Source: Desulfurococcales archaeon (GTDB lineage: Archaea > Thermoproteota > Thermoprotei_A > Sulfolobales > Desulfurococcaceae). From it: a DNA stretch of 64,000 nucleotides. The stretch covers positions 1 through 64,000 of the forward strand of contig JALVYU010000007.1 in assembly GCA_027022365.1 (NCBI GenBank), written 5' to 3'. This document shows positions 451 through 26,667 of this stretch, piece by piece. A program made the position numbers and the translations under genes. Each line of letters opens with the position of its first letter. Position 1 is the stretch's first letter. The notes under the pieces were generated by a model. That model was not told the DNA's origin. It saw nothing but the letters and a program-made list of their open reading frames with translations, and did no database searches.

Positions 451-1175
<725 letters not shown>

Positions 1176-2269: not shown

Positions 2270-5497
<3,228 letters not shown>

Positions 5498-10573: not shown

Positions 10574-11566
10574 ATGCCGACACGCATAGATCTCGGCGAA
10601 GCACCGGAGGGGCTGCTCGAGCTAGAAAACAACGAAATACTGGAGGAGTTCCTATTAGCTCTCGAGGCGGCCGGCGCTAGCCCGGAGACAATAAAGGCTT
10701 ATAGAGCAGCGATAACCGATTTTCTAGAATACCTCGGCGACAAGCCATTGAAACAGGTAACCATTAGAGATGTGATCAGGTGGAGAAACCAGAAGCTCAG
10801 AAAAGGCTTCAAGAAACCTAGACAAAAGGAAAAAAGGGGCTGGCAGGTAACCCTCCACTACTACACATTGTTCCTTAGAAGGTTCCTTGAATGGCTAGGA
10901 ATAAAAATAAGAATACCGGGTGTTAGGAAGCCGCCGCGAAAAATAGAGGCGCTTAGCGATGACGAGATAGAGAGAATGTATAATGCTGTACGCGACCCTC
11001 TGGACAGACTAATACTGGATCTGCTCCTCGACACGGGGCTGAGAAGCAAGGAGCTACTAGGGCTAAAGGTTAAAGACATAGACCTAAACAACCTGGTAAT
11101 AACGGTTAAAGAAACCAAGTATGGCCGCGAAAGAAAAGTAGTCATAACCCCCAAGACAGCCGAGACCATTCGTTCCTGGATAAAGCTCAGCGGGCTACGC
11201 CCCGAGGACAGACTAGTAGGTCTAACATATGCAGGCCTATACAAGAGGATAAGAAAGCTCGGTGAAAGAGCGGGTATACCTAGGGAAAAGGCGCGCCCAC
11301 ACGTACTAAGACATACATTTGCCACACGGGCACTGAGAAGAGGACTTAGCCTACCATCGCTGCAGAGGCTCCTCGGCCACACAGACATAAAGACAACACA
11401 GGTATACATGCATCTAACGATAGAAGATGTACGCAGAGAATATCTGAGCATTCTAGCAGGCAACAAGTGCCCTACATGTGGGAGAGAAGTACCGGTTGGA
11501 GCAAAATTCTGTCCCTACTGCGGTACAAAGATAAATGGTGGTAACGAAGCATTAGCCACCACTTAG
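10574..11566 (+). CDS. xerA: XerA-type tyrosine recombinase with C-terminal zinc ribbon
   Basis: Site-specific recombinase expected to resolve chromosome dimers at an archaeal dif site. N-terminal SAM-like core-binding domain at about residues 22-110, catalytic domain at about 125-290. Catalytic set: Arg157 (GLRSKELLGL), Lys182, His243 and Arg246 (HVLRHTF), His269 (LLGHTDIKTT) and nucleophile Tyr278. After the catalytic domain comes a four-cysteine zinc ribbon (Cys299, 302, 313, 316), which is not part of the classical XerA of Pyrococcus as I know it. It sits alone, with a convergent gene overlapping its end by 15 nt. A mobile-element integrase is less likely, because there is no att-like repeat or tRNA next to it. 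Confidence 0.88.
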   Translation: MPTRIDLGEAPEGLLELENNEILEEFLLALEAAGASPETIKAYRAAITDFLEYLGDKPLKQVTIRDVIRWRNQKLRKGFKKPRQKEKRGWQVTLHYYTLFLRRFLEWLGIKIRIPGVRKPPRKIEALSDDEIERMYNAVRDPLDRLILDLLLDTGLRSKELLGLKVKDIDLNNLVITVKETKYGRERKVVITPKTAETIRSWIKLSGLRPEDRLVGLTYAGLYKRIRKLGERAGIPREKARPHVLRHTFATRALRRGLSLPSLQRLLGHTDIKTTQVYMHLTIEDVRREYLSILAGNKCPTCGREVPVGAKFCPYCGTKINGGNEALATT

Positions 11567-17005: not shown

Positions 17006-17590
17006 ATGGAGTACCTAGAAGAAAGAAAGGCAATTGTAGATGTCATGAGAACACTTGTCATGCTCGGTCTCACTAATCCCAAGGGTGGGAACGCAAGTAT
17101 CCGTGTAGGTAATACTGTCTTATTAACGCCCTCGGCTATCCCTAAGCATAAATTGAAACCAGAGGATATTGTCGTATATGATATGCTTACCGGAAAATAT
17201 ACTGGAAAACATCGAGCGTCTATTGAATGTAACGCTCACTTAATGATATATAAAAGTATTAACGAAGCAAGAGCCGTGCTTCACGCCCATACACCGATCT
17301 CATTAGCACTGGTCGATGCAGGCATTGATCTTAATCAAGAGAAGATCGTGGAAACCGAATACAGTATAGGCCGGGTATGTGTTACAGAGGAGGCACCACC
17401 TGGATCACTGGAGCTCGCCGTAAAAGTGGCCCAAGCAGCAAAGAACTGTAGAACTATAATAGTGCCTAGACATGGTGTGTTTGTGTGGGCGAGCAACATA
17501 TATGATGCACTGGACACGATCATATCGCTAGAATCTACTGCAAAATACTATGTTGTTAAAAGGCTTGCCCTGAAAAACCTCTTGGGCTAG
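17006..17590 (+). CDS. Class II aldolase/adducin-family protein
   Basis: 194 aa zinc-dependent aldolase of the fuculose-phosphate aldolase type. Phosphate-site pattern [10 protein letters not shown], catalytic Glu in SIECNAHLM, zinc ligands HAH (in VLHAHTPIS) and the third His in RHGVFVW. Small archaeal members often serve as general aldolases in pentose or fuculose metabolism; the substrate here is not fixed. ATG 17006 is the start; upstream codons lie inside the MBL gene. It ends 4 nt inside atpB, which runs the other way. Confidence 0.85.
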
Positions 17591-18993
17591 CTCTTCTTTT
17601 TCCTGTATTTAGGATGATACTTCTTAATGTGTTCTTCCTTCACATGTTTCAGCTCGTCCTCGGGTAGTATCGCGAGAAGTTCCCAGCCCAGATCAAGTGT
17701 CTCCTCGATTGTGCGGCGCTCGTATTCTCCCTGGCCTATGAATTCTTTCTCGAACCTGTCAGCGAACTCCAGATACTTCTTGTCACGTGGTGATAGGGCT
17801 TCAGTACCAACGACTACCGCTAGTTCTCTCAGCTTAACGCCTTCGGCGTAGGCGCTGTACAGCTGCATAAATACTCCTCTATGGTCTTCCCTCGTCTTTC
17901 CTTCGCCTATACCGTCCTTCATAAGACGTGAAAGGCTCATCAATATATCGAAAGGCGGATAGATACCCTTCAACCACAGCTGTCTAGATAACACTAGCTG
18001 GCCCTCCGTGATATAGCCTGTAAGGTCTGGTATGGGGTGTGTGATGTCGTCGTCGGGCATTGTCAGTATAGGCATTTGTGTAACACTGCCCTTCTTCCCG
18101 GCCACCCTACCGGCTCTCTCATAAATCGTTGCTAGGTCGGTGTACATGTATCCCGGATAGCCTCTCCTGCTCGGCACCTCTTCTCTCGCTGCGCTGAGCT
18201 CTCTGAGTGCTTCACAATAGTTGGTCATGTCTGTCAGTATTGCCAGTACATGCATATCGTGATTCCACGCCAAGTACTCGGCTGCTGTGAGAGCGACGCG
18301 GGGCACCGCTATTCTCTCGATCACAGGCGAGTCCGCCGTGTTAATGAACGCTACGGTGTTCTCTAGTGCACCGTAGCGTTTGAAGTTCTCGATAAAGAAC
18401 ATTGCATCGTCATAGCTAACGCCTATAGCTGCAAACACTATTGCGAACTTCTCTTCCTTGCCACGAACCCTTGCCTGCCTCACGATCTGAGCCGCTATCC
18501 TGTTGTGGGGCAGGCCCGAGCCGCTGAATATGGGTAGTTTCTGGCCTCTGACTAGGCTGTTCAGCCCATCAATAGCCGAGATCCCTGTCTCGATGAACTC
18601 GCTTGGCGGGAGCCTTGAGGCAGGGTTGAGGGGTGAGCCATTAATATCTTGGTAGTCCTCGGGCACAATTGGGGGGCCGCCATCGATCGGTCTTCCTAAT
18701 CCATCAAATATTCTTCCAAGCATGTCTATACCTACTGGTAGTTTGAGTGCTTCTCCTCGGTATCTTATCCTTGAATAGTGCATGTCTACCTCGCTTACAC
18801 CGCCGAAAACCTGGATTACAACCGCGTCTTTCCCGACATCTATTACTTGTCCGAGCCTTGTATCACCGGTTCCTAGCAGTACTTCGACTACTTCTCCGTA
18901 GCTAACGCCTTTCATGGGCTCCGCTATTATTAGGCTTCCCTGAGCCTTATAGAGGCCTGGGGATTCCCTGATAGCTAGGGATGGGCTAGGCAT
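17587..18993 (-). CDS. atpB: A-type ATP synthase subunit B
   Basis: Non-catalytic nucleotide-binding subunit that alternates with subunit A in the A3B3 head. Typical archaeal strings are present: [15 protein letters not shown] in place of a P-loop, [13 protein letters not shown]-like [14 protein letters not shown], and [21 protein letters not shown] 18993 is chosen: GGAGGTG lies 7 nt upstream and the codon overlaps the atpA stop (ATGCCTAG). Last gene of the operon. Confidence 0.97.
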
Positions 18994-20752
18994 ATACGTG
19001 CACCTCCTCAATTAGCTTGGAGTACTCGTCGCGTATGAACTTGTATAGTTCTTCAAAGTAGGGCTCAAAGCCCTTGTTGGGGATCTCTTTCATTCTAGCT
19101 ATTCTTGCCCTTGACTTCATCTCTCTGATCTTCTCCACTGTTACGCCTCTCTGTATGGCCTCTAATCCTAGGTCGTAGAACAACAATATAGCCCTCATCA
19201 TCATAGAGGCTTTCCTCGGCGGGCAATACGTGTCGATCTCGTGGAAAGCGTTCTGCTGTAAGAAGTCCTCCCTGATCATACGTGCTACTTCAAGGACTAA
19301 CTTGTCTTCCTCGGGCAGAGCCTCAGCACCCACTAGCCTAACAAGTTCTTCTAGCTCGGCTTCTTTCTGTAGAATCGCTAACGCCTTTTCCCTGAGGCTT
19401 CTCCACTCAGGATCAATATTCTTGTGCCACCAGCTGGTTACATTGTCGACGTAGAGGCTATAGCTTGTCAGCCAATTAATTGCTGGGTAGTGTCTCCTAT
19501 AAGCCAAGTTGACGTCGAGAGCATATAACGCTCTAACTATTCTGAGCGTAGATTGTGTTACTGGCTCGCTGAAGTCGGCGCCGGGGGGCGATACAGCACC
19601 AATAATCGTCAGGCTTCCCCTACGTTCGGGTTTGCCGAGGGTGACAACGTGACCGCTGCGCTCATAGAAGCTGGCAAGCCTTGAACCCAGGTAGGCTGGG
19701 TACCCCTCCTCGCCGGGCAGCTCCTCGAGGCGACCGCTGATCTCTCTCATCGCCTCAGCCCATCTGCTTGTAGAGTCTGCAACCATTAGTATGTGGTATC
19801 CCATGTCTCTGAAGTACTCGCCTATTGTCGCCCCCAGGAATATGCTTGTCTCTCTAGCTGCTACAGGCATGTTGCTGGTGTTAGCAATGAACACGCTTCT
19901 TTCCACTAGCGGTTTACCCGTCCTTGGATCTACTAGTTTGCGGAAGCTATGCAAAGCATCCGCCATCTCGTTACCGCGTTCTCCGCATCCGACATATATG
20001 GCTATGTCTACGTGGCTCCACTTCGTGAGCTGTTGGAGGGTAACGGTTTTACCTGTACCGAAGCCTCCCGGTATAGCGGCCTTTCCTCCTTTGGCGAGCG
20101 GGAAGAAGAAGTCGATGACTCTCTGCCCCGTTATGAGCGGCTCAGTGGGTTCAAGCTTCTCTTTGTACGGTCTTGGCTTCCTTACTGGCCATTTCTGAAG
20201 CATAACTAATTCTTTTCCATCGATGCGCGCAATGGGATCAGTTATTGTATAGTCGCCCTCCGGCACGATATCCTCGATCACTCCGTGAACGTTCGGGGGT
20301 GCCATGATATAGTGTTTCACAGTCTCTGTTTCCTGCACATAACCTATGTAATCATTAGGTTCTATCTTGTCCCCTTTTCTCACAAGGGGTATGAAATGCC
20401 ACTTCTTGTCTCTTGGAAGCGGAGCGGCCTTAACACCTTTTTTTATAAAGAACCCGACGAGCTCCTCAAGGATAGGGAGGGGCCTCTGTATACCATCATA
20501 GATAGAACCTATGAGGCCCGGACCCAGCTCAGCAGCGAGAGGATATCCGGTGCCAACTACGTTATCTCCTACCCTAAGGCCGGTCGTATCCTCGTACACC
20601 TGGATGATAGCCTTATCTCCTTCAACACCAATAATTTCTCCGATCAGTCTCTCAGGACCTACTTCCACTACTTCGTATACCTTTGACCCCCTCATATTCT
20701 CAGCGATCACAAGGGGGCCTGAAACCCTGTATACACGTCCTCTTACAACCAT
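18986..20752 (-). CDS. atpA: A-type ATP synthase catalytic subunit A
   Basis: Catalytic subunit, about 588 aa and without an intein. The P-loop reads [10 protein letters not shown] instead of the commoner GPFGSGKTVT. The archaeal non-homologous region near residues 110-190 is present, as are the catalytic strings [28 protein letters not shown], and the [16 protein letters not shown] segment. GGAGTGAT is 5 nt before ATG 20752, which is better than TTG 20758. Confidence 0.97.
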
Positions 20753-20816
20753 ACGCAATCACTCCTTAAACATGTGTGTAAGCATTATGTAGCGGGAGAT
20801 TCAGCCCCTGTAAAAA

Positions 20817-21149
20817 CTATATGGATATTTTTAAGCCTATGTATTTTCTTATCATTTCCTCATAGTACTTCTTAGGATCTATCTCGGCTAGTACCTTGGG
20901 TGTTTCCACAGTTATGAACAAGACATCATTGTATCTCTCTTTTAGCTGCTCAAATACATTGTGACATTTCTCATCAGCTGTCCGCGACAATATTACAACG
21001 CCATATTCTCCGTGGTTTTTCGATACGAGCTCCTCTATTTCTCCGCATTTCCCTGTGAATTCGAGGTAATCGGTGCCGGCCGCAGCACCGATCAGGCAGA
21101 GGAAAGGATCACCTATTACAAGCACTTTTCTTTCTCTCGGCGTCGTCAT
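20817..21149 (-). CDS. atpF: A-type ATP synthase subunit F
   Basis: About 110 aa central-stalk subunit with a Rossmann-like N-terminus (VLVIGDPFLCLIGAAAG) and the usual strand-helix core (GVVILSRTADEKC, DVLFITVETP). The start ATG 21149 overlaps the atpC stop as ATGA, which implies coupled translation. Confidence 0.9.
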   Translation of the reverse strand: MTTPRERKVLVIGDPFLCLIGAAAGTDYLEFTGKCGEIEELVSKNHGEYGVVILSRTADEKCHNVFEQLKERYNDVLFITVETPKVLAEIDPKKYYEEMIRKYIGLKISI

Positions 21150-22120
21150 AGCAGCCACCATTCATCAATGATTTCTTTAAGTTCCGATACGAGAGTACCT
21201 GCTTCTATTGAGGCAAGCACCGCTCGTACCAGCATAGACTCGCCCACGAATAGGACGTATGTTTTAGCAATAGCTTCTTGGAGACCCGCGGCGGTTGTTT
21301 TTGATGCAATGTTCGAAACATATAGGGTTACCGCGAGATCGTATGGAATCATTGATCTGTCGAGTCTCTTCATATCGTTCAGTATCTCTGCAAAACCGCT
21401 TATGATAGGATTCGATGATCTAATCATAGTTATGAGATTATCGATGTCCTTAGTTGCCGAGCAAGCATTTGTGAACTCATCTCTTGTGACTACGTAGAGG
21501 GATGGCAGGGTCTCCGGCGTTCTCTCCAATATACTACAAGTCTTAAGTAGCAAGAGATCATGATATAACCCGTATAGCGTACGCACCAACTTATTCTGTA
21601 TATCTGTTTTTATCAGCGAGAAACCATATGGTATTGCGGAGTATCCGCCACCAGTTTTATCTGCAATCATTGATGCATAAGAGTGTAGTTCTTGCGGGAG
21701 ATTCTCAATGAATTCATTTATGTCTCTTACTTGCTCAATATCAAGAGCTGATGTTTTTCCCACAGGATATATAGGCTCCGGTTTCAGCCCCTTCATCACG
21801 TAACCGATCATGACGGCGATGTTGATTATGTCGAATAACTCGTTGAAAGCATCAATAATGGAGGAATTCTTTTCACTAATTTTCCTCAACAATGCTATAC
21901 GATCATTGTTAAGAATGCTTATTTCTCTGGAGAGTTTCCGGAGCTCTTTTTTCCCTGTTTTAATTGATTCGTAAAGCCTTAGTCCTATAGGCTTATTACC
22001 TATGATCTTGACTGCATCGCTCACTGTCTTTTGGGAAAGCATTTCATCTAGTTCTTTTCTCGTGGCAATCGTGCTGAGCATGTTTTTGATCCGTGAGTAC
22101 TGGTAATAGTTGTCGTGCAA
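21146..22120 (-). CDS. atpC: A-type ATP synthase subunit C
   Basis: 324 aa, all-helical subunit that sockets the central stalk on the K ring (homologous to yeast subunit d). Family features: the YYQYSRIKNM N-terminus and long helices rich in Leu/Ile with internal pseudo-repeats. TTG 22120 is the likely start, 9 nt after the atpE stop. Sequence is divergent, and the call rests partly on operon position. Confidence 0.9.
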   Translation of the reverse strand: MHDNYYQYSRIKNMLSTIATRKELDEMLSQKTVSDAVKIIGNKPIGLRLYESIKTGKKELRKLSREISILNNDRIALLRKISEKNSSIIDAFNELFDIINIAVMIGYVMKGLKPEPIYPVGKTSALDIEQVRDINEFIENLPQELHSYASMIADKTGGGYSAIPYGFSLIKTDIQNKLVRTLYGLYHDLLLLKTCSILERTPETLPSLYVVTRDEFTNACSATKDIDNLITMIRSSNPIISGFAEILNDMKRLDRSMIPYDLAVTLYVSNIASKTTAAGLQEAIAKTYVLFVGESMLVRAVLASIEAGTLVSELKEIIDEWWLL

Positions 22121-22129
22121 GCTTATGCA

Positions 22130-22723
22130 TCAACCCCATAGGATCCTTGCAATAACTGGTACCAATGTTGTCTTGGCTCGTTCGAGCCTAACATCGTAGG
22201 AATTATTGACTACCTTACCATCTTTTGTCTCAACTATTACTCCGCCCAAGATACTGTTATTTATGAGTATATCGGCTTTGAGATTCTGAGAACGAGCAAC
22301 TCTATTGGCTATATCGAGATCTTTCTCATTAACAATGATCTTTGCGATCTCGTTGGGCTCGATATACTCGTAGGTTTCCTTCAACAGTTTCTCTATTGAC
22401 TGGTATATGTCGAAGCCTTTGCGCTCATTAATAACTTCTCTCGCCTTATTGAAAACCTCTTCAATTAATTCATATTTGGCCTTGCTCACAATGATTCTTG
22501 CCTGTCTCCTTGCATCAGAAAGCACTATGTGTGCCTGAATCCTGGCGTTTTGGATAATCTTTTCTCTCTCACGCCTCACTCTCTCTTGGAATTTCCTTTC
22601 AGCCTCTCTTATTATTTCATTAGCCTTCTTTTTCGCTTCACTGATAATTCTCTCTGCCTCCTTCCTCGCATCCTCAATGATCTTGTTTCTAAGCTCGTCA
22701 AGCCCTGTAGTCTCTATGGCCAC
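22130..22723 (-). CDS. atpE: A-type ATP synthase subunit E
   Basis: 197 aa peripheral-stalk subunit. Long N-terminal charged coiled coil (residues about 10-90, alternating Ala/Glu/Lys/Arg) pairs with subunit H; the globular C-terminus has GGVIVETKDGKVVNN and a VRLERAKTTL string as in known E subunits. GTG 22723 follows a GAGGTG site. Confidence 0.93.
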   Translation of the reverse strand: MAIETTGLDELRNKIIEDARKEAERIISEAKKKANEIIREAERKFQERVRREREKIIQNARIQAHIVLSDARRQARIIVSKAKYELIEEVFNKAREVINERKGFDIYQSIEKLLKETYEYIEPNEIAKIIVNEKDLDIANRVARSQNLKADILINNSILGGVIVETKDGKVVNNSYDVRLERAKTTLVPVIARILWG

Positions 22724-22735
22724 TATGGGGGCACC

Positions 22736-23203
22736 TCAGCCTATAAGTGATAGTCCCATGAGTCCGAATACCATACCTAGAATGCCCATCAACTCAACAT
22801 ATACTGCTAGGATTAGTGCATTGAACGTTATTCTGCCCTTGGTTCTCGGCAGCTCCGCTATTCCCGATGCACATATTACTCCCTGGAACCATGCTGAGAA
22901 CAGCTCGGCTCCAGCAACAGCGAGGCCGAGGCCAAGGATCGCTAGTCCTGTGGAGAGGGTCAGAGTTGATATGTGGCCTTTAACAAAGTTGACGAACTGT
23001 ATCAATACTATTAGCCCATAGAATGTCTGGGTCATCGGGAGCGCTGCGAGCAAGAATACGTTTCTAAACTGTCTCGGATCCTCGGCGAGAGTCGCGGTGC
23101 CAGCGGCTCCGGCTTTCCCTATTCCTATCGATGAGCCCACTAGGCCGCCGAGTAGCGCTAATGCTGCTCCCGCATAAGCAAGGCCTAGTGCTAGAACGTC
23201 CAT
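22736..23203 (-). CDS. atpK: A-type ATP synthase subunit K (rotor ring proteolipid)
   Basis: 155 aa with four membrane helices, i.e. two fused hairpins, the V-type design with one ion-binding carboxylate per chain. The first hairpin carries LPMTQTFYG (Leu55, Thr58, Gln59, Tyr62), helix 3 carries AWFQG (Gln107) and helix 4 carries YVELMG (Glu137). These residues and their spacing match the Na+ ligand set of the Enterococcus hirae NtpK ring (Leu61, Thr64, Gln65, Tyr68, Gln110, Glu139). Sodium coupling is therefore likely. GAGGT precedes ATG 23203 at proper spacing; the codon at 23224 is too early. The long gap upstream of it (23204-23324) is the only sizeable break in the operon. Confidence 0.95.
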   Translation of the reverse strand: MDVLALGLAYAGAALALLGGLVGSSIGIGKAGAAGTATLAEDPRQFRNVFLLAALPMTQTFYGLIVLIQFVNFVKGHISTLTLSTGLAILGLGLAVAGAELFSAWFQGVICASGIAELPRTKGRITFNALILAVYVELMGILGMVFGLMGLSLIG

Positions 23204-23324: not shown

Positions 23325-25292
23325 CTACTCTATAACCACACGTTTTCTAAGCACTATCTTCATAGGTTCGAACGGGTAGCCTGTGCCTTCATAGAATTTG
23401 CTGAGAAATTCTACGAAACATAGACGTATTGAGTGAATAAAGCCTCCCAGCGCCGACAGGGCGGTGTTCAGTATGTGGCCGAAAGCAGCGATCATGAGGG
23501 CAACTATCCCTCCCACAATTAGACCTACTAACGAAGGTAGCGAAGACTGTATCCCCCCGAGGGCCATTTGTGCCAATAGGTTGAAGCTCGAGGCCAGATA
23601 TAGTGTTGCCAATCCTACTCCAGCCAATCTACTATAGCTTAGTACGTCTCCGAGTAGTCCCGTAATGCTGAACAACCACATCAGGAGGCCTAGTCCCCCC
23701 AAGTTCTTGATCGTCCCTATAACGATCAGCGCTATGCCTACGAACGCTCCATACAACAGGTAGTTGTATATATATGGCGGTATCCCGGGTATCGGTGTGT
23801 TGAGTACTTTGTACACTATGTATGGTATGCCGAAGGCCTCCCCTATGAAGAGCCCTATTTCGTTCAGTGCATCGCCGATTTGACGATGTTTAATGGCTTT
23901 AGCCAGTGTTATGGCGTGGGCTAAATTTACATGAATAAGCCCGATAATTATCGCTAATGCAAGGAATTTTAATGGATCAATAAAGATGTCGGTGAACTGG
24001 AACCCTAGACCGAATATCTTTAAAGTATTGCCGAAGAAAGAGCCGCCAAGGGCGCCAATAACAAAGCCTACAATACTTGATACTATTATAGAGTTTTTGA
24101 AGTAGACGTAGTCCTTGTTTTCGGGATCATTAGTGAACTTATCAAGAATATATAGTGCTGCTAATATAATCGCTATAGCGTAACCCATATCGCCAAGCAT
24201 TATTCCGAAGAATAGTGCAAAAGAGTAAGCTATTATAGGTGTAGGGTCCCACTCCCTATAATCTGGTACCCCCAAGAATTTGACTATGGGTTCAAACCAC
24301 CTGATTATCCTCGGGTTATCGAGCATTGTTGGTGGCTGCTCGTGTTCCCCGGGTTCCCTGAACTCCACGTATGCTGCGATATTGTTTTTCCTAAAGGTAT
24401 CGAGCAGTTTTTGCTTGTATTTTACTGGAACCCAGCCTCTCAATATGGTCATGTACTTTGTGCTGAGAGACTTGATCAGGGCTTCGAGCCTTTCTATTAT
24501 GTTCTCGAGAACGACCTTATACTTGGCCAAGTATTCGCCGTTTTCCTCGATGATCTTGTCTATCTCTTCTTTGAGCTCGTTTATTCTACTCTCGGCTTCG
24601 CCTGCAAGTCTGCTTAGCTTATTGATCAGATCCTTTACTGTTCTAGTGTTGTCGCGTATATACTTTGATAGAGATAAATAGGATAAGCCATAGTTTAGCG
24701 CGATATCTCTGGTTTTATGGTAGACGGTTTTCTTTACAACACAGTTAACTATGCCTAGCCCCTCACGGCTTATCTTGAGCAACACTATTGGCTTGGCGTC
24801 GGATATGAATTGCTCAACGGATTCGGTTCTGCCGTAATATGTTGATGCTATGTAGTGTTTACCCTCGTACTGCAGGTTATTGACCAGGTAATCCTGTGGT
24901 AGTAAAGAAAGTATTCTTAGATATTCTTTGACTTCATCGAGTCTTGTAAGCTCTGATCTCAGGTTGTCCTCGAGCACCTGTATCTCAGTATAGATCTTGT
25001 TTACGTCGGAGTATATCTTAGAAATACTTAGGTCCTCGATATCCATGGGTGTTAGATTTACAAGGTATACTTTTCCACGTTTACGGCTAAGTATAGAATC
25101 TATGATCTCGAGCGCATGCCGGGCCTCTTCGTATTCCTTCAAGTATTTCTCGATCTCTTTCTCCGAGGCCTTGGTTATCTGTATTACTCCTATGCTCTGT
25201 AATAGCTTGATGGTGTCTCTCAGCTGGTTCTTAGGGACTATGATCTCTGCTTTCAGCATTTTCACTGGTTTATTGAGGACAATAGGTAACAT
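23325..25292 (-). CDS. atpI: A-type ATP synthase subunit I
   Basis: 655 aa static membrane subunit (V-type subunit a). The cytoplasmic N-terminal half (residues 1-320) has two alpha/beta lobes joined by long coiled coils; the C-terminal half has about seven or eight membrane helices, beginning after WDPTPIIAYSFALFFGIMLG. The essential Arg is expected in the last-but-one helix region. Start overlaps the atpH stop (TAATG). Confidence 0.95.
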   Translation of the reverse strand: MLPIVLNKPVKMLKAEIIVPKNQLRDTIKLLQSIGVIQITKASEKEIEKYLKEYEEARHALEIIDSILSRKRGKVYLVNLTPMDIEDLSISKIYSDVNKIYTEIQVLEDNLRSELTRLDEVKEYLRILSLLPQDYLVNNLQYEGKHYIASTYYGRTESVEQFISDAKPIVLLKISREGLGIVNCVVKKTVYHKTRDIALNYGLSYLSLSKYIRDNTRTVKDLINKLSRLAGEAESRINELKEEIDKIIEENGEYLAKYKVVLENIIERLEALIKSLSTKYMTILRGWVPVKYKQKLLDTFRKNNIAAYVEFREPGEHEQPPTMLDNPRIIRWFEPIVKFLGVPDYREWDPTPIIAYSFALFFGIMLGDMGYAIAIILAALYILDKFTNDPENKDYVYFKNSIIVSSIVGFVIGALGGSFFGNTLKIFGLGFQFTDIFIDPLKFLALAIIIGLIHVNLAHAITLAKAIKHRQIGDALNEIGLFIGEAFGIPYIVYKVLNTPIPGIPPYIYNYLLYGAFVGIALIVIGTIKNLGGLGLLMWLFSITGLLGDVLSYSRLAGVGLATLYLASSFNLLAQMALGGIQSSLPSLVGLIVGGIVALMIAAFGHILNTALSALGGFIHSIRLCFVEFLSKFYEGTGYPFEPMKIVLRKRVVIE

Positions 25293-25597
25293 TACTGTGC
25301 ACCCACGACCCGGCGGACAAGCTCATCGACGGCTTGATCTATTTTCGCTCTTCCTTTTCTCCTGATTTCCTCTGCCTGGGCATATGCTTCATTAAGGATT
25401 TTTTCTGCTTCTCTCTTTGCTTCTTCTACTAATTTTTCTGCTTCTTTCTTAAACTCCTCCGTGGGTATGGGGGCTGATAGTATTTGTTCAGCCCTCGTTT
25501 TCGCCTTCTTTATTATTTCATCGGCTTTCTTTCTAGCCTCTTCAATGATTCTATCGGCTTCCCTCTCGATCTCCTCTATATTCAAGCTGTCACTCAA
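25292..25597 (-). CDS. atpH: A-type ATP synthase subunit H
   Basis: 101 aa peripheral-stalk subunit, an almost unbroken coiled coil with Ala and Glu/Lys/Arg heptads and hendecads (for example EADRIIEEARKKADEIIKKA), interrupted by a Pro-containing kink (APIPTEE). It partners subunit E. It is followed directly by atpI. Confidence 0.88.
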   Translation of the reverse strand: MSDSLNIEEIEREADRIIEEARKKADEIIKKAKTRAEQILSAPIPTEEFKKEAEKLVEEAKREAEKILNEAYAQAEEIRRKGRAKIDQAVDELVRRVVGAQ

Positions 25598-25624: not shown

Positions 25625-26047
25625 TCATGTAGGGGTAAAAATAATCGTTGTTGTGGTTCTTAGGCGTGTTCGTAATTCATATAATTGAGGCCTGTAAAAT
25701 ATAAGCTCTCCTTTCCCGCTATGGTCCAGGCCCAGTATTTTTGCCACCGCAAGAGCAGCTACTGGGTCACGTATTCTGTAGACGCCCTCGCCTAGAGATG
25801 GTGAAGACTCTATGATTATGGGTATCTTGATAAGGCAGACCTTATCGCCGAGAATATTTCTTAGTAGTTGTAGCTCTCTCTTGTCGATTAGATGTGTTGT
25901 ACCATCCCTTAGGACTATGTATGGAGGATTCATATCTATGAGATCACATAGACTTATCCGCCTGTATGGCATGTGCTTATTAATGATCCTGAGCTCGTCC
26001 TTAAGGGCCTTTAGCACCATGTCATCGAGATCGGGATCGAGGCTCAT
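25625..26047 (-). CDS. UPF0216/DUF61 family protein inside the ATP synthase operon
   Basis: 140 aa. It matches the archaeal UPF0216 pattern: INKHMPYRRISLCDLI near the start, then YIVLRDGTTHLIDKRELQ, and a LIKIPIII strand. The function of the family is unknown. Its ATG overlaps the atpD stop by 4 nt (ATGA), so it is translated together with ATP synthase, sitting between D and H. Confidence 0.8.
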   Translation of the reverse strand: MSLDPDLDDMVLKALKDELRIINKHMPYRRISLCDLIDMNPPYIVLRDGTTHLIDKRELQLLRNILGDKVCLIKIPIIIESSPSLGEGVYRIRDPVAALAVAKILGLDHSGKGELIFYRPQLYELRTRLRTTTTIIFTPT

Positions 26048-26667
26048 TTCCTACCACGCTTTTTCTCAAGCATACTCTTAACTCGTTTTAGCCTGGCTTT
26101 TTCTTCTCGCTCCCTCTCCTCAAACTTCATGGAAAGATAGCGTATGGTTTTCTCGAGCCTCGGTATAACTATATACTCTAACGCGTTGACTTTTCTTTTG
26201 GTTCTACCTATTTCTTTGCCCAAACTGATTATTGCCTGCTCGGTCCTGCCTAGATCTATGATCATAGTGATTATCTTGATGGCTTCTCTCGAGAACTCGT
26301 CAAGACCGGGGGGAAGAGACACGAGGATCTCGGGCTCCTTCACAACAGCACTGACCGAACGGACACCCATAATGTTTTCGTGTCCCACATAAACCCTCAT
26401 TCCATTCTTTAAGGATGAACGTAGAAAGGAGTATGATTTATCACCATAAGTGCCCGTCAACAGTATTGCCTTATTATAGACTGATGATATATACTTGTTC
26501 AACTCCAACCTGAAATTATATGCCTCACGAACACGTGTAAGGAACTCATTAACAAGTATGGTTAATCTTTCCCTGAGAATCCTATGAACCTTTTTAGCCA
26601 GGTCCCTGCGTCTACGTAGCTTGATCAGCTCTATCTTTGTCGCCCTAACCCTCATCAACGAAGACAT
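26044..26667 (-). CDS. atpD: A-type ATP synthase subunit D
   Basis: 207 aa central-shaft subunit (gamma-like). N-terminal string RATKIELIKLRRRRDLAKKVHRILRERL and C-terminal helix with RTKRKVNALEYIVIPRLEKTI are diagnostic. It is the first gene of the operon instead of following atpB as in the common H-I-K-E-C-F-A-B-D order. ATG 26667 lies within a few nt of the predicted transcription start, so the message is nearly leaderless. Confidence 0.93.
   Translation of the reverse strand: MSSLMRVRATKIELIKLRRRRDLAKKVHRILRERLTILVNEFLTRVREAYNFRLELNKYISSVYNKAILLTGTYGDKSYSFLRSSLKNGMRVYVGHENIMGVRSVSAVVKEPEILVSLPPGLDEFSREAIKIITMIIDLGRTEQAIISLGKEIGRTKRKVNALEYIVIPRLEKTIRYLSMKFEEREREEKARLKRVKSMLEKKRGRK

What the first reader, a model, noticed from the sequence alone, without database searches (positions are those of the whole stretch)
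22736..23203. Rotor ring subunit K carries a complete Na+ ligand set
Leu55, Thr58, Gln59, Tyr62, Gln107 and Glu137 match, in identity and local spacing, the Na+ site of the Enterococcus hirae V-ATPase K ring. One carboxylate per four-helix chain also follows the V-type design. This predicts that the organism's ATP synthase runs on sodium, and that its energy metabolism must build a sodium gradient.
Basis: partly seen in the sequence, partly recalled or inferred. Interest (0 to 1): 0.5.

Follow-up and report, generated by a model that had tools for sequence, protein, structure and literature searches.

The report
Sodium-type ATP synthase rotor subunit
This archaeon's ATP-making motor has a rotor subunit with all the residues used elsewhere to grip sodium, and its genome holds matching sodium pumps, so it very probably makes ATP from a sodium gradient, as was already suspected for its relatives.

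Summary
Window 22736-23203 (minus strand) encodes a 155-aa, four-helix K subunit in an archaeal ATP synthase operon. L55, T58, Q59, Y62, Q107 and E137 align one-to-one with E. hirae NtpK L61, T64, Q65, Y68, Q110 and E139. T, Q, Y, Q and E are kept in 59 of 61 four-helix K rows; the two exceptions are paralogues that lost the site.

The sodium reading is well supported by context. The genome has five Mrp-type antiporter clusters with redox modules and a sodium-pump decarboxylase beta subunit. Of 118 genomes (own and relatives), MnhB occurs in 57 of 58 with four-helix K and in 0 of 49 with only two-helix c. Ion specificity was not measured.

The idea is in print: Na+-ligand signatures (2008), a sodium cycle in Desulfurococcaceae (2010). 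This is a new member of a known kind.

Correction: TM3 holds a second intramembrane carboxylate, E100, invariant in relatives but absent from E. hirae. By-product: two related genera carry an operon-encoded K paralogue without the ion-binding carboxylate, under purifying selection.

The parts
22736..23203 (-). subunit K (rotor ring), 155 aa, four helices
23018..23041 (-). TM2 ligand block L55-P-M-T58-Q59-T-F-Y62
   Evidence: aligned to E. hirae L61/T64/Q65/Y68; codons
22883..22885 (-). Q107 (TM3), aligned to E. hirae Q110
22793..22795 (-). E137 (TM4), ion-binding carboxylate, aligned to E. hirae E139
22904..22906 (-). E100 (middle of TM3), second intramembrane carboxylate, role unknown
   Evidence: E in 101 of 103 distinct four-helix rows; helix 83-116 in the model
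17587..19011 (-). subunit B
   Evidence: Pfam
18986..20758 (-). subunit A (catalytic)
   Evidence: Pfam
20817..21161 (-). probable subunit F (114 aa)
   Evidence: no Pfam match; named by place and length only
21146..22120 (-). subunit C (AC39)
   Evidence: Pfam
22130..22723 (-). subunit E
   Evidence: Pfam
23325..25292 (-). subunit I/a (stator partner of the ring)
   Evidence: Pfam V_ATPase_I
25292..25597 (-). subunit H/G-like peripheral stalk
   Evidence: weak Pfam V-ATPase_G matches below the cut-off; named also by place
25625..26047 (-). DUF61 protein inside the operon
   Evidence: Pfam
26044..26667 (-). subunit D
   Evidence: Pfam

Best explanation
The window encodes an archaeal A/V-type ATP synthase whose K ring binds one Na+ per four-helix subunit at E137, with T58, Q59, Q107 and the L55 carbonyl as ligands and Y62 holding the carboxylate. 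Redox complexes that carry an Mrp module (hydrogenase, MBX/MBS-like, CO dehydrogenase) and a sodium-translocating decarboxylase charge the membrane with Na+; the Na+ returns through the ring and drives ATP synthesis. Shown here: the residues, the predicted fold, the operon, the pump genes and the co-occurrence. Inferred: side-chain geometry, Na+ specificity, the pumps' coupling ion and the direction of flow.
For: Exact ligand alignment to a ring solved as a Na+ V-ATPase rotor. Invariance in relatives. Two-helix c subunits of the order's other families: 47 of 52 rows have G or A after the carboxylate, 5 (family f7) have T. Five Mrp clusters and an OAD beta subunit in the same genome. MnhB in 57 of 58 genomes with four-helix K and 0 of 49 with two-helix c alone; the one miss is an 81%-complete genome. 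The pairing recurs in four further families, f12, f13, f47 and f68: MnhB in 6 of 6 genomes searched (four-helix K matched or seen). The E. hirae enzyme makes ATP from a Na+ gradient in liposomes (PMC12018189, abstract and passages).
Against: No measurement. Na+ ligand sets do not exclude H+ use. The fold match does not separate Na+ from H+ rings. Co-occurrence is inflated by shared descent. Three of 20 further f2/f3 genomes searched lacked MnhB (G175, G190, G193; 52-77% complete). The decarboxylase beta subunit does not follow K type: 36 of 118 genomes have it, five of them f9 genomes with two-helix c only, and many f1 genomes lack it. One genome, G076, has its MnhB/NiFe-hydrogenase cluster on the same contig as a proton-type two-helix ATPase, its four-helix K being on a separate 3.7-kb contig. 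E100 has no counterpart in E. hirae, so the two subunits are not identical around the site.
Confidence: 0.87

Rival explanations
1. The ring is promiscuous: it binds Na+ and H+ with similar occupancy in the cell and runs on both.
For: The M. acetivorans ring is described as using both ions (PMC3692424, passages); a second intramembrane Glu (E100) is present here.
Against: The M. acetivorans second Glu is called the equivalent of F. nucleatum Glu32, i.e. the Na+-binding Gln position, which is Q107 here; E100 is seven residues away. The E. hirae ligand set is complete.
Confidence: 0.1
2. The residues are an inherited relic and the enzyme is a proton ATP synthase.
For: Some Na+ ligands persist in H+ rings (PMC2359735, passages).
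Against: The five side-chain residues are invariant in the 59 site-bearing rows; families of the order with two-helix c and no MnhB lack the T/Q pair after the carboxylate, f7 keeping a T.
Confidence: 0.03

Closest known systems
Enterococcus hirae NtpK ring (PDB 2bl2)
   Same: four helices, same six residues at the Na+ site, same fold (Z 21.0, rmsd 1.7 A, 150 residues)
   Different: 29% identity; E100 is Gly in E. hirae; here the operon is archaeal and holds a DUF61 gene between D and H
Pyrococcus furiosus Na+ ATP synthase with MBH/MBS
   Same: Mrp-linked hydrogenase-type complexes plus a Na+ ATP synthase (PMC8415708, passages)
   Different: here also a CO dehydrogenase-Mrp cluster and a decarboxylase beta subunit; P. 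furiosus K was not compared
Staphylothermus marinus and Thermosphaera aggregans (Desulfurococcaceae)
   Same: mbh/mbx-like operons; a Na+ decarboxylase in S. marinus (PMC2678158, passages); Na+-dependent ATP synthesis proposed to explain the antiporter genes (PMC3035292, passages)
   Different: the passages seen do not discuss K ligands; five Mrp clusters here against three operons reported in S. marinus

Membership tests
V/A-type ATP synthase subunit K | ATP-synt_C hairpins and K equivalog score | tested here: met
V/A-type ATP synthase subunit K | encoded in an ATP synthase operon | tested here: met
   F named by place only, H weakly
Na+-binding K subunit (E. hirae type) | complete ligand set L, T, Q, Q, E plus Tyr | tested here: met
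Na+-binding K subunit (E. hirae type) | four-helix fold superposable on 2bl2 | tested here: met
   predicted model; proton-type c subunits superpose as well
Na+-binding K subunit (E. hirae type) | one ion-binding carboxylate per four helices | tested here: inconclusive
   hairpin 1 has M57 in place of Glu, but a second Glu (E100) lies mid-TM3
Na+-binding K subunit (E. hirae type) | side chains point to the bound ion | not testable with these tools
   model coordinates not available
Na+-binding K subunit (E. hirae type) | Na+-dependent activity, Na+ protection from DCCD | not testable with these tools
   needs purified enzyme
Pyrococcus-type Na+ energy cycle | Mrp-linked redox pumps in the same genome | tested here: met
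   gene content only

The most novel reading that the evidence does not exclude
In this archaeal K family the ring departs from the E. hirae plan. The site-bearing K of relatives carry a second buried carboxylate (E100) that joins the ion-site network. In two related genera the ring is also mixed: an operon-encoded, conserved K paralogue that lost E137 and Q107 takes seats in the ring and lowers the number of Na+ per ATP. The window's own genome has one K only, so the second part does not apply to it.
Probability: 0.3. Interest if true: 0.6.

Novelty: new member of a known kind. Interest (0 to 1): 0.32.

Why it matters
It places an archaeon known here only from its genome among organisms that probably run on a sodium cycle, and shows the four-helix K type and Mrp modules occurring together in eight families, which would make the coupling ion predictable from a genome. 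The conserved E100 and the carboxylate-less paralogues are testable questions about how many ions a ring carries and how the gear ratio can change.

Tried and rejected
Viral contigs: no relative of K found. Membrane pyrophosphatase as a pump: 39 of 118 genomes have it, none of them f1, the own genome included. Fold search as evidence for Na+: rejected, proton-type c subunits score the same. The decarboxylase as a marker of K type: rejected, it does not track it. G076 as independent proof of co-transfer: rejected as uncertain. Its four-helix K sits on a 3.7-kb contig whose tetranucleotide make-up does not mark it as foreign (0.925 against 0.858-0.931 for pieces of the main contig), but its Mrp cluster is on the contig of its proton-type ATPase. 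A near-complete genome of the genus (G005, 99%) has neither a K nor an A match yet has five MnhB matches. I read this as a missing contig, since the operon lies near the rRNA genes in the window, but loss is not excluded. G007 and G094 have A but no K match, with A near the start of a contig. G180's K pair: a young duplication (dS 0.18, dN 0.12) with Q107 changed to K in one copy, not counted as a conserved paralogue. Paper searches for carboxylate-less or tandem K in archaea and for a second carboxylate listed nothing that, by title and abstract start, describes them. Two of these lists were cut (12 of 15, 12 of 28), most listed papers were not opened, and only the open-licence library was searched.

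Full report
What is there. Window 22736-23203, minus strand, is a 155-aa open frame in the gene order D, DUF61, H, I, K, E, C, F, A, B, all on the minus strand between 26667 and 17587. F is named by place alone and H rests on weak matches. The window is the first 64 kb of contig C7 of a 1.74-Mb assembly in 44 contigs; C7 is 189,006 bases long. Archaeal 16S and 23S genes lie at its start. The nearest named relatives by K are three MAGs labelled Desulfurococcales or Thermoproteota, 99% identical.

The ligand set. phmmer puts E. hirae NtpK (2bl2) first, at 48.3 bits. The alignment matches L55/T58/Q59/Y62/Q107/E137 to L61/T64/Q65/Y68/Q110/E139. Of 118 genomes (own and relatives), 107 had a K or c match; I fetched one or more loci from each of the 107, and all 110 loci and the window gave a hit. 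They gave 61 four-helix rows from 58 genomes and 52 two-helix rows from 50 genomes, G076 having both kinds. T, Q, Y, Q, E are complete in 59 of 61 and the full six, L55 included, in 53 of 61. The two rows that fail are second copies in G008 and G011. Of 52 two-helix rows, 47 have G or A after the carboxylate and 5 (family f7) have T.

Structure. AlphaFold2 with 43 rows gave mean pLDDT 95.7. The model matches 2bl2 at Z 21.0, 1.7 A, 150 residues, tied with eukaryotic proton c subunits at Z 20 to 21.3. Side-chain geometry was not examined.

The chain has two glutamates in mid-helix: E137 and E100. E100 is in the middle of TM3, seven residues before Q107, so on the same helix face by a 100-degree step (inference). 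It is E in 101 of 103 distinct four-helix rows, the exceptions being E. hirae (G) and the G008 paralogue (Q); in that paralogue S24, S or T in the other 102 rows, is A. It is not the position of the second glutamate of Fusobacterium c, where Glu32 replaces the Na+-binding Gln (PMC3692424, passages). Its role is unknown. Thermococcales K was not examined.

Sodium pumps in the same genome. MnhB: five matches. MnhE: five matches. The five neighbourhoods hold: an MBX/MBS-like 49-kDa subunit with an antiporter subunit; a 49-kDa subunit with CGIC and HxxC motifs, NiFe-type, beside HypF; two 30+49-kDa fusions, one of them preceded by a CooC-like ATPase; and a CO dehydrogenase catalytic subunit (Pfam; NCBIfam TIGR01702 497.5 bits, cut-off 478). 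The labels MBX/MBS-like, NiFe-type and CooC-like are my reading of motifs and matches. An OAD beta subunit is present (3.5e-161), with a gamma-like and an alpha-like frame near it, named by eye. Membrane pyrophosphatase gave no match. OAD beta does not track K type: 36 of 118 genomes have it, among them five f9 genomes with two-helix c only.

Co-occurrence. Of 118 genomes: 58 with four-helix K, 57 of them with MnhB (the exception G003 is 81% complete); 49 with two-helix c only, 0 with MnhB; 11 with no K or c match, 9 with MnhB. MnhE is likewise found in 66 of 118. Shared descent makes Fisher's p of 6e-30 meaningless as a probability. As a rough guard I counted families: 8 of 8 four-helix families have MnhB against 1 of 16 others, p 1e-5. 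The mixed family f9 was left out; I chose the ten families outside the order from the best hits, and for some of them the c type is taken from the match shape, since not all sequences were read. In a second set of 39 genomes MnhB was found in 17 of 20 further f2/f3 genomes (four-helix by their matches; five were read), in 6 of 6 genomes of f12, f13, f47 and f68, and in 1 of 13 others (G377, weak, 2.7e-9). The three f2/f3 misses are 52 to 77% complete.

Prior knowledge. Mulkidjanian et al. 2008 (PMC2359735; passages, and section 8 whole) set out this ligand set and its use to predict Na+ ATPases, and discuss double-hairpin K. The Thermosphaera aggregans genome paper (PMC3035292, passages) already says that Na+-dependent ATP synthesis would explain the antiporter genes beside MBH-type hydrogenases in Desulfurococcaceae. 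The Staphylothermus marinus paper (PMC2678158, passages) reports three mbh/mbx-like operons and a Na+ decarboxylase. The P. furiosus paper (PMC8415708, passages) describes MBH/MBS Na+ pumping and a Na+ ATP synthase. E. hirae V-ATPase makes ATP from a Na+ gradient (PMC12018189, abstract and passages). The finding is therefore a new member of a known kind.

By-product. G008 (one contig, 99% complete) and G011 (70% complete) have two K genes side by side between the I and E genes, live first in G008 and second in G011 (in G008 a nudix gene lies between I and the pair). The second copies have E137 to G and Q107 to L; G008's also has T58 to A and Y62 to F. They group together apart from the live copies (99/89), which suggests one duplication before the two genera split, although parts of the two G011 copies are identical and conversion is likely. 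Between the two, pN is 0.255 and pS 0.738, so they are not free-running pseudogenes; pS is near saturation, and conversion could also lower pN. Both pass the K equivalog cut-off (114.7 and 113.9 against 108), so annotation would not show the loss. If built into the ring they would lower the ions per ATP (inference). I saw no other tandem pair with a lost carboxylate in the matches (229 class genomes) or in the cut list (398 phylum genomes). G180 has a young pair with Q107 to K in one copy. Two K matches also occur in G033 (two contigs, both site-bearing), G120 (two contigs, one copy cut off), G118 (two pieces on two contigs) and G513 (second place not read).

Noticed in passing
L035:2999-3463 (G008) and L038:2130-2594 (G011): Tandem second K genes in the ATP synthase operon that lost the ion-binding Glu (to G) and Gln (to L), grouped as orthologues across two genera and under purifying selection.
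   Followed up: yes
window 22904-22906: E100, a glutamate in the middle of TM3 kept in 101 of 103 four-helix K rows and absent from E. hirae; role unknown.
   Followed up: partly
L266:2089-2586 and 2729-3223 (G180): A young tandem K pair; one copy has Lys in place of the Na+-ligand Gln.
   Followed up: partly
L088 and L154/L155 (G076): A genome with both a proton-type two-helix ATPase (same contig as a NiFe hydrogenase-Mrp cluster) and a four-helix Na+-type operon piece on a short contig: dual ATP synthases or contamination.
   Followed up: partly
window 451-1128: LAGLIDADG endonuclease frame inside the 16S rRNA gene; the 16S match is about 580 bases longer than its model span, consistent with an intron.
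   Followed up: partly
G005 (same genus, 99% complete): No K and no A subunit match although five MnhB matches are present; missing contig or loss.
   Followed up: partly
L170, L171, L182: Dehalococcoidia and deltaproteobacterial MAGs encode K 57-59% identical to the archaeal K; in the tree three bacterial rows group with archaeal G345, suggesting transfer between domains.
   Followed up: no
L299, L301 (G248, G269): Six-helix c subunits with three carboxylates and no MnhB in the genomes.
   Followed up: no
L089-L092 (G075, G065): Two different two-helix c genes in separate loci of one genome, perhaps two ATPases.
   Followed up: no
L153:16327-17891: Frames made of a repeated peptide near the CO dehydrogenase-Mrp cluster, probably a CRISPR array.
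   Followed up: no
window 10574-11566: Phage-integrase family protein with a C-terminal zinc ribbon.
   Followed up: no
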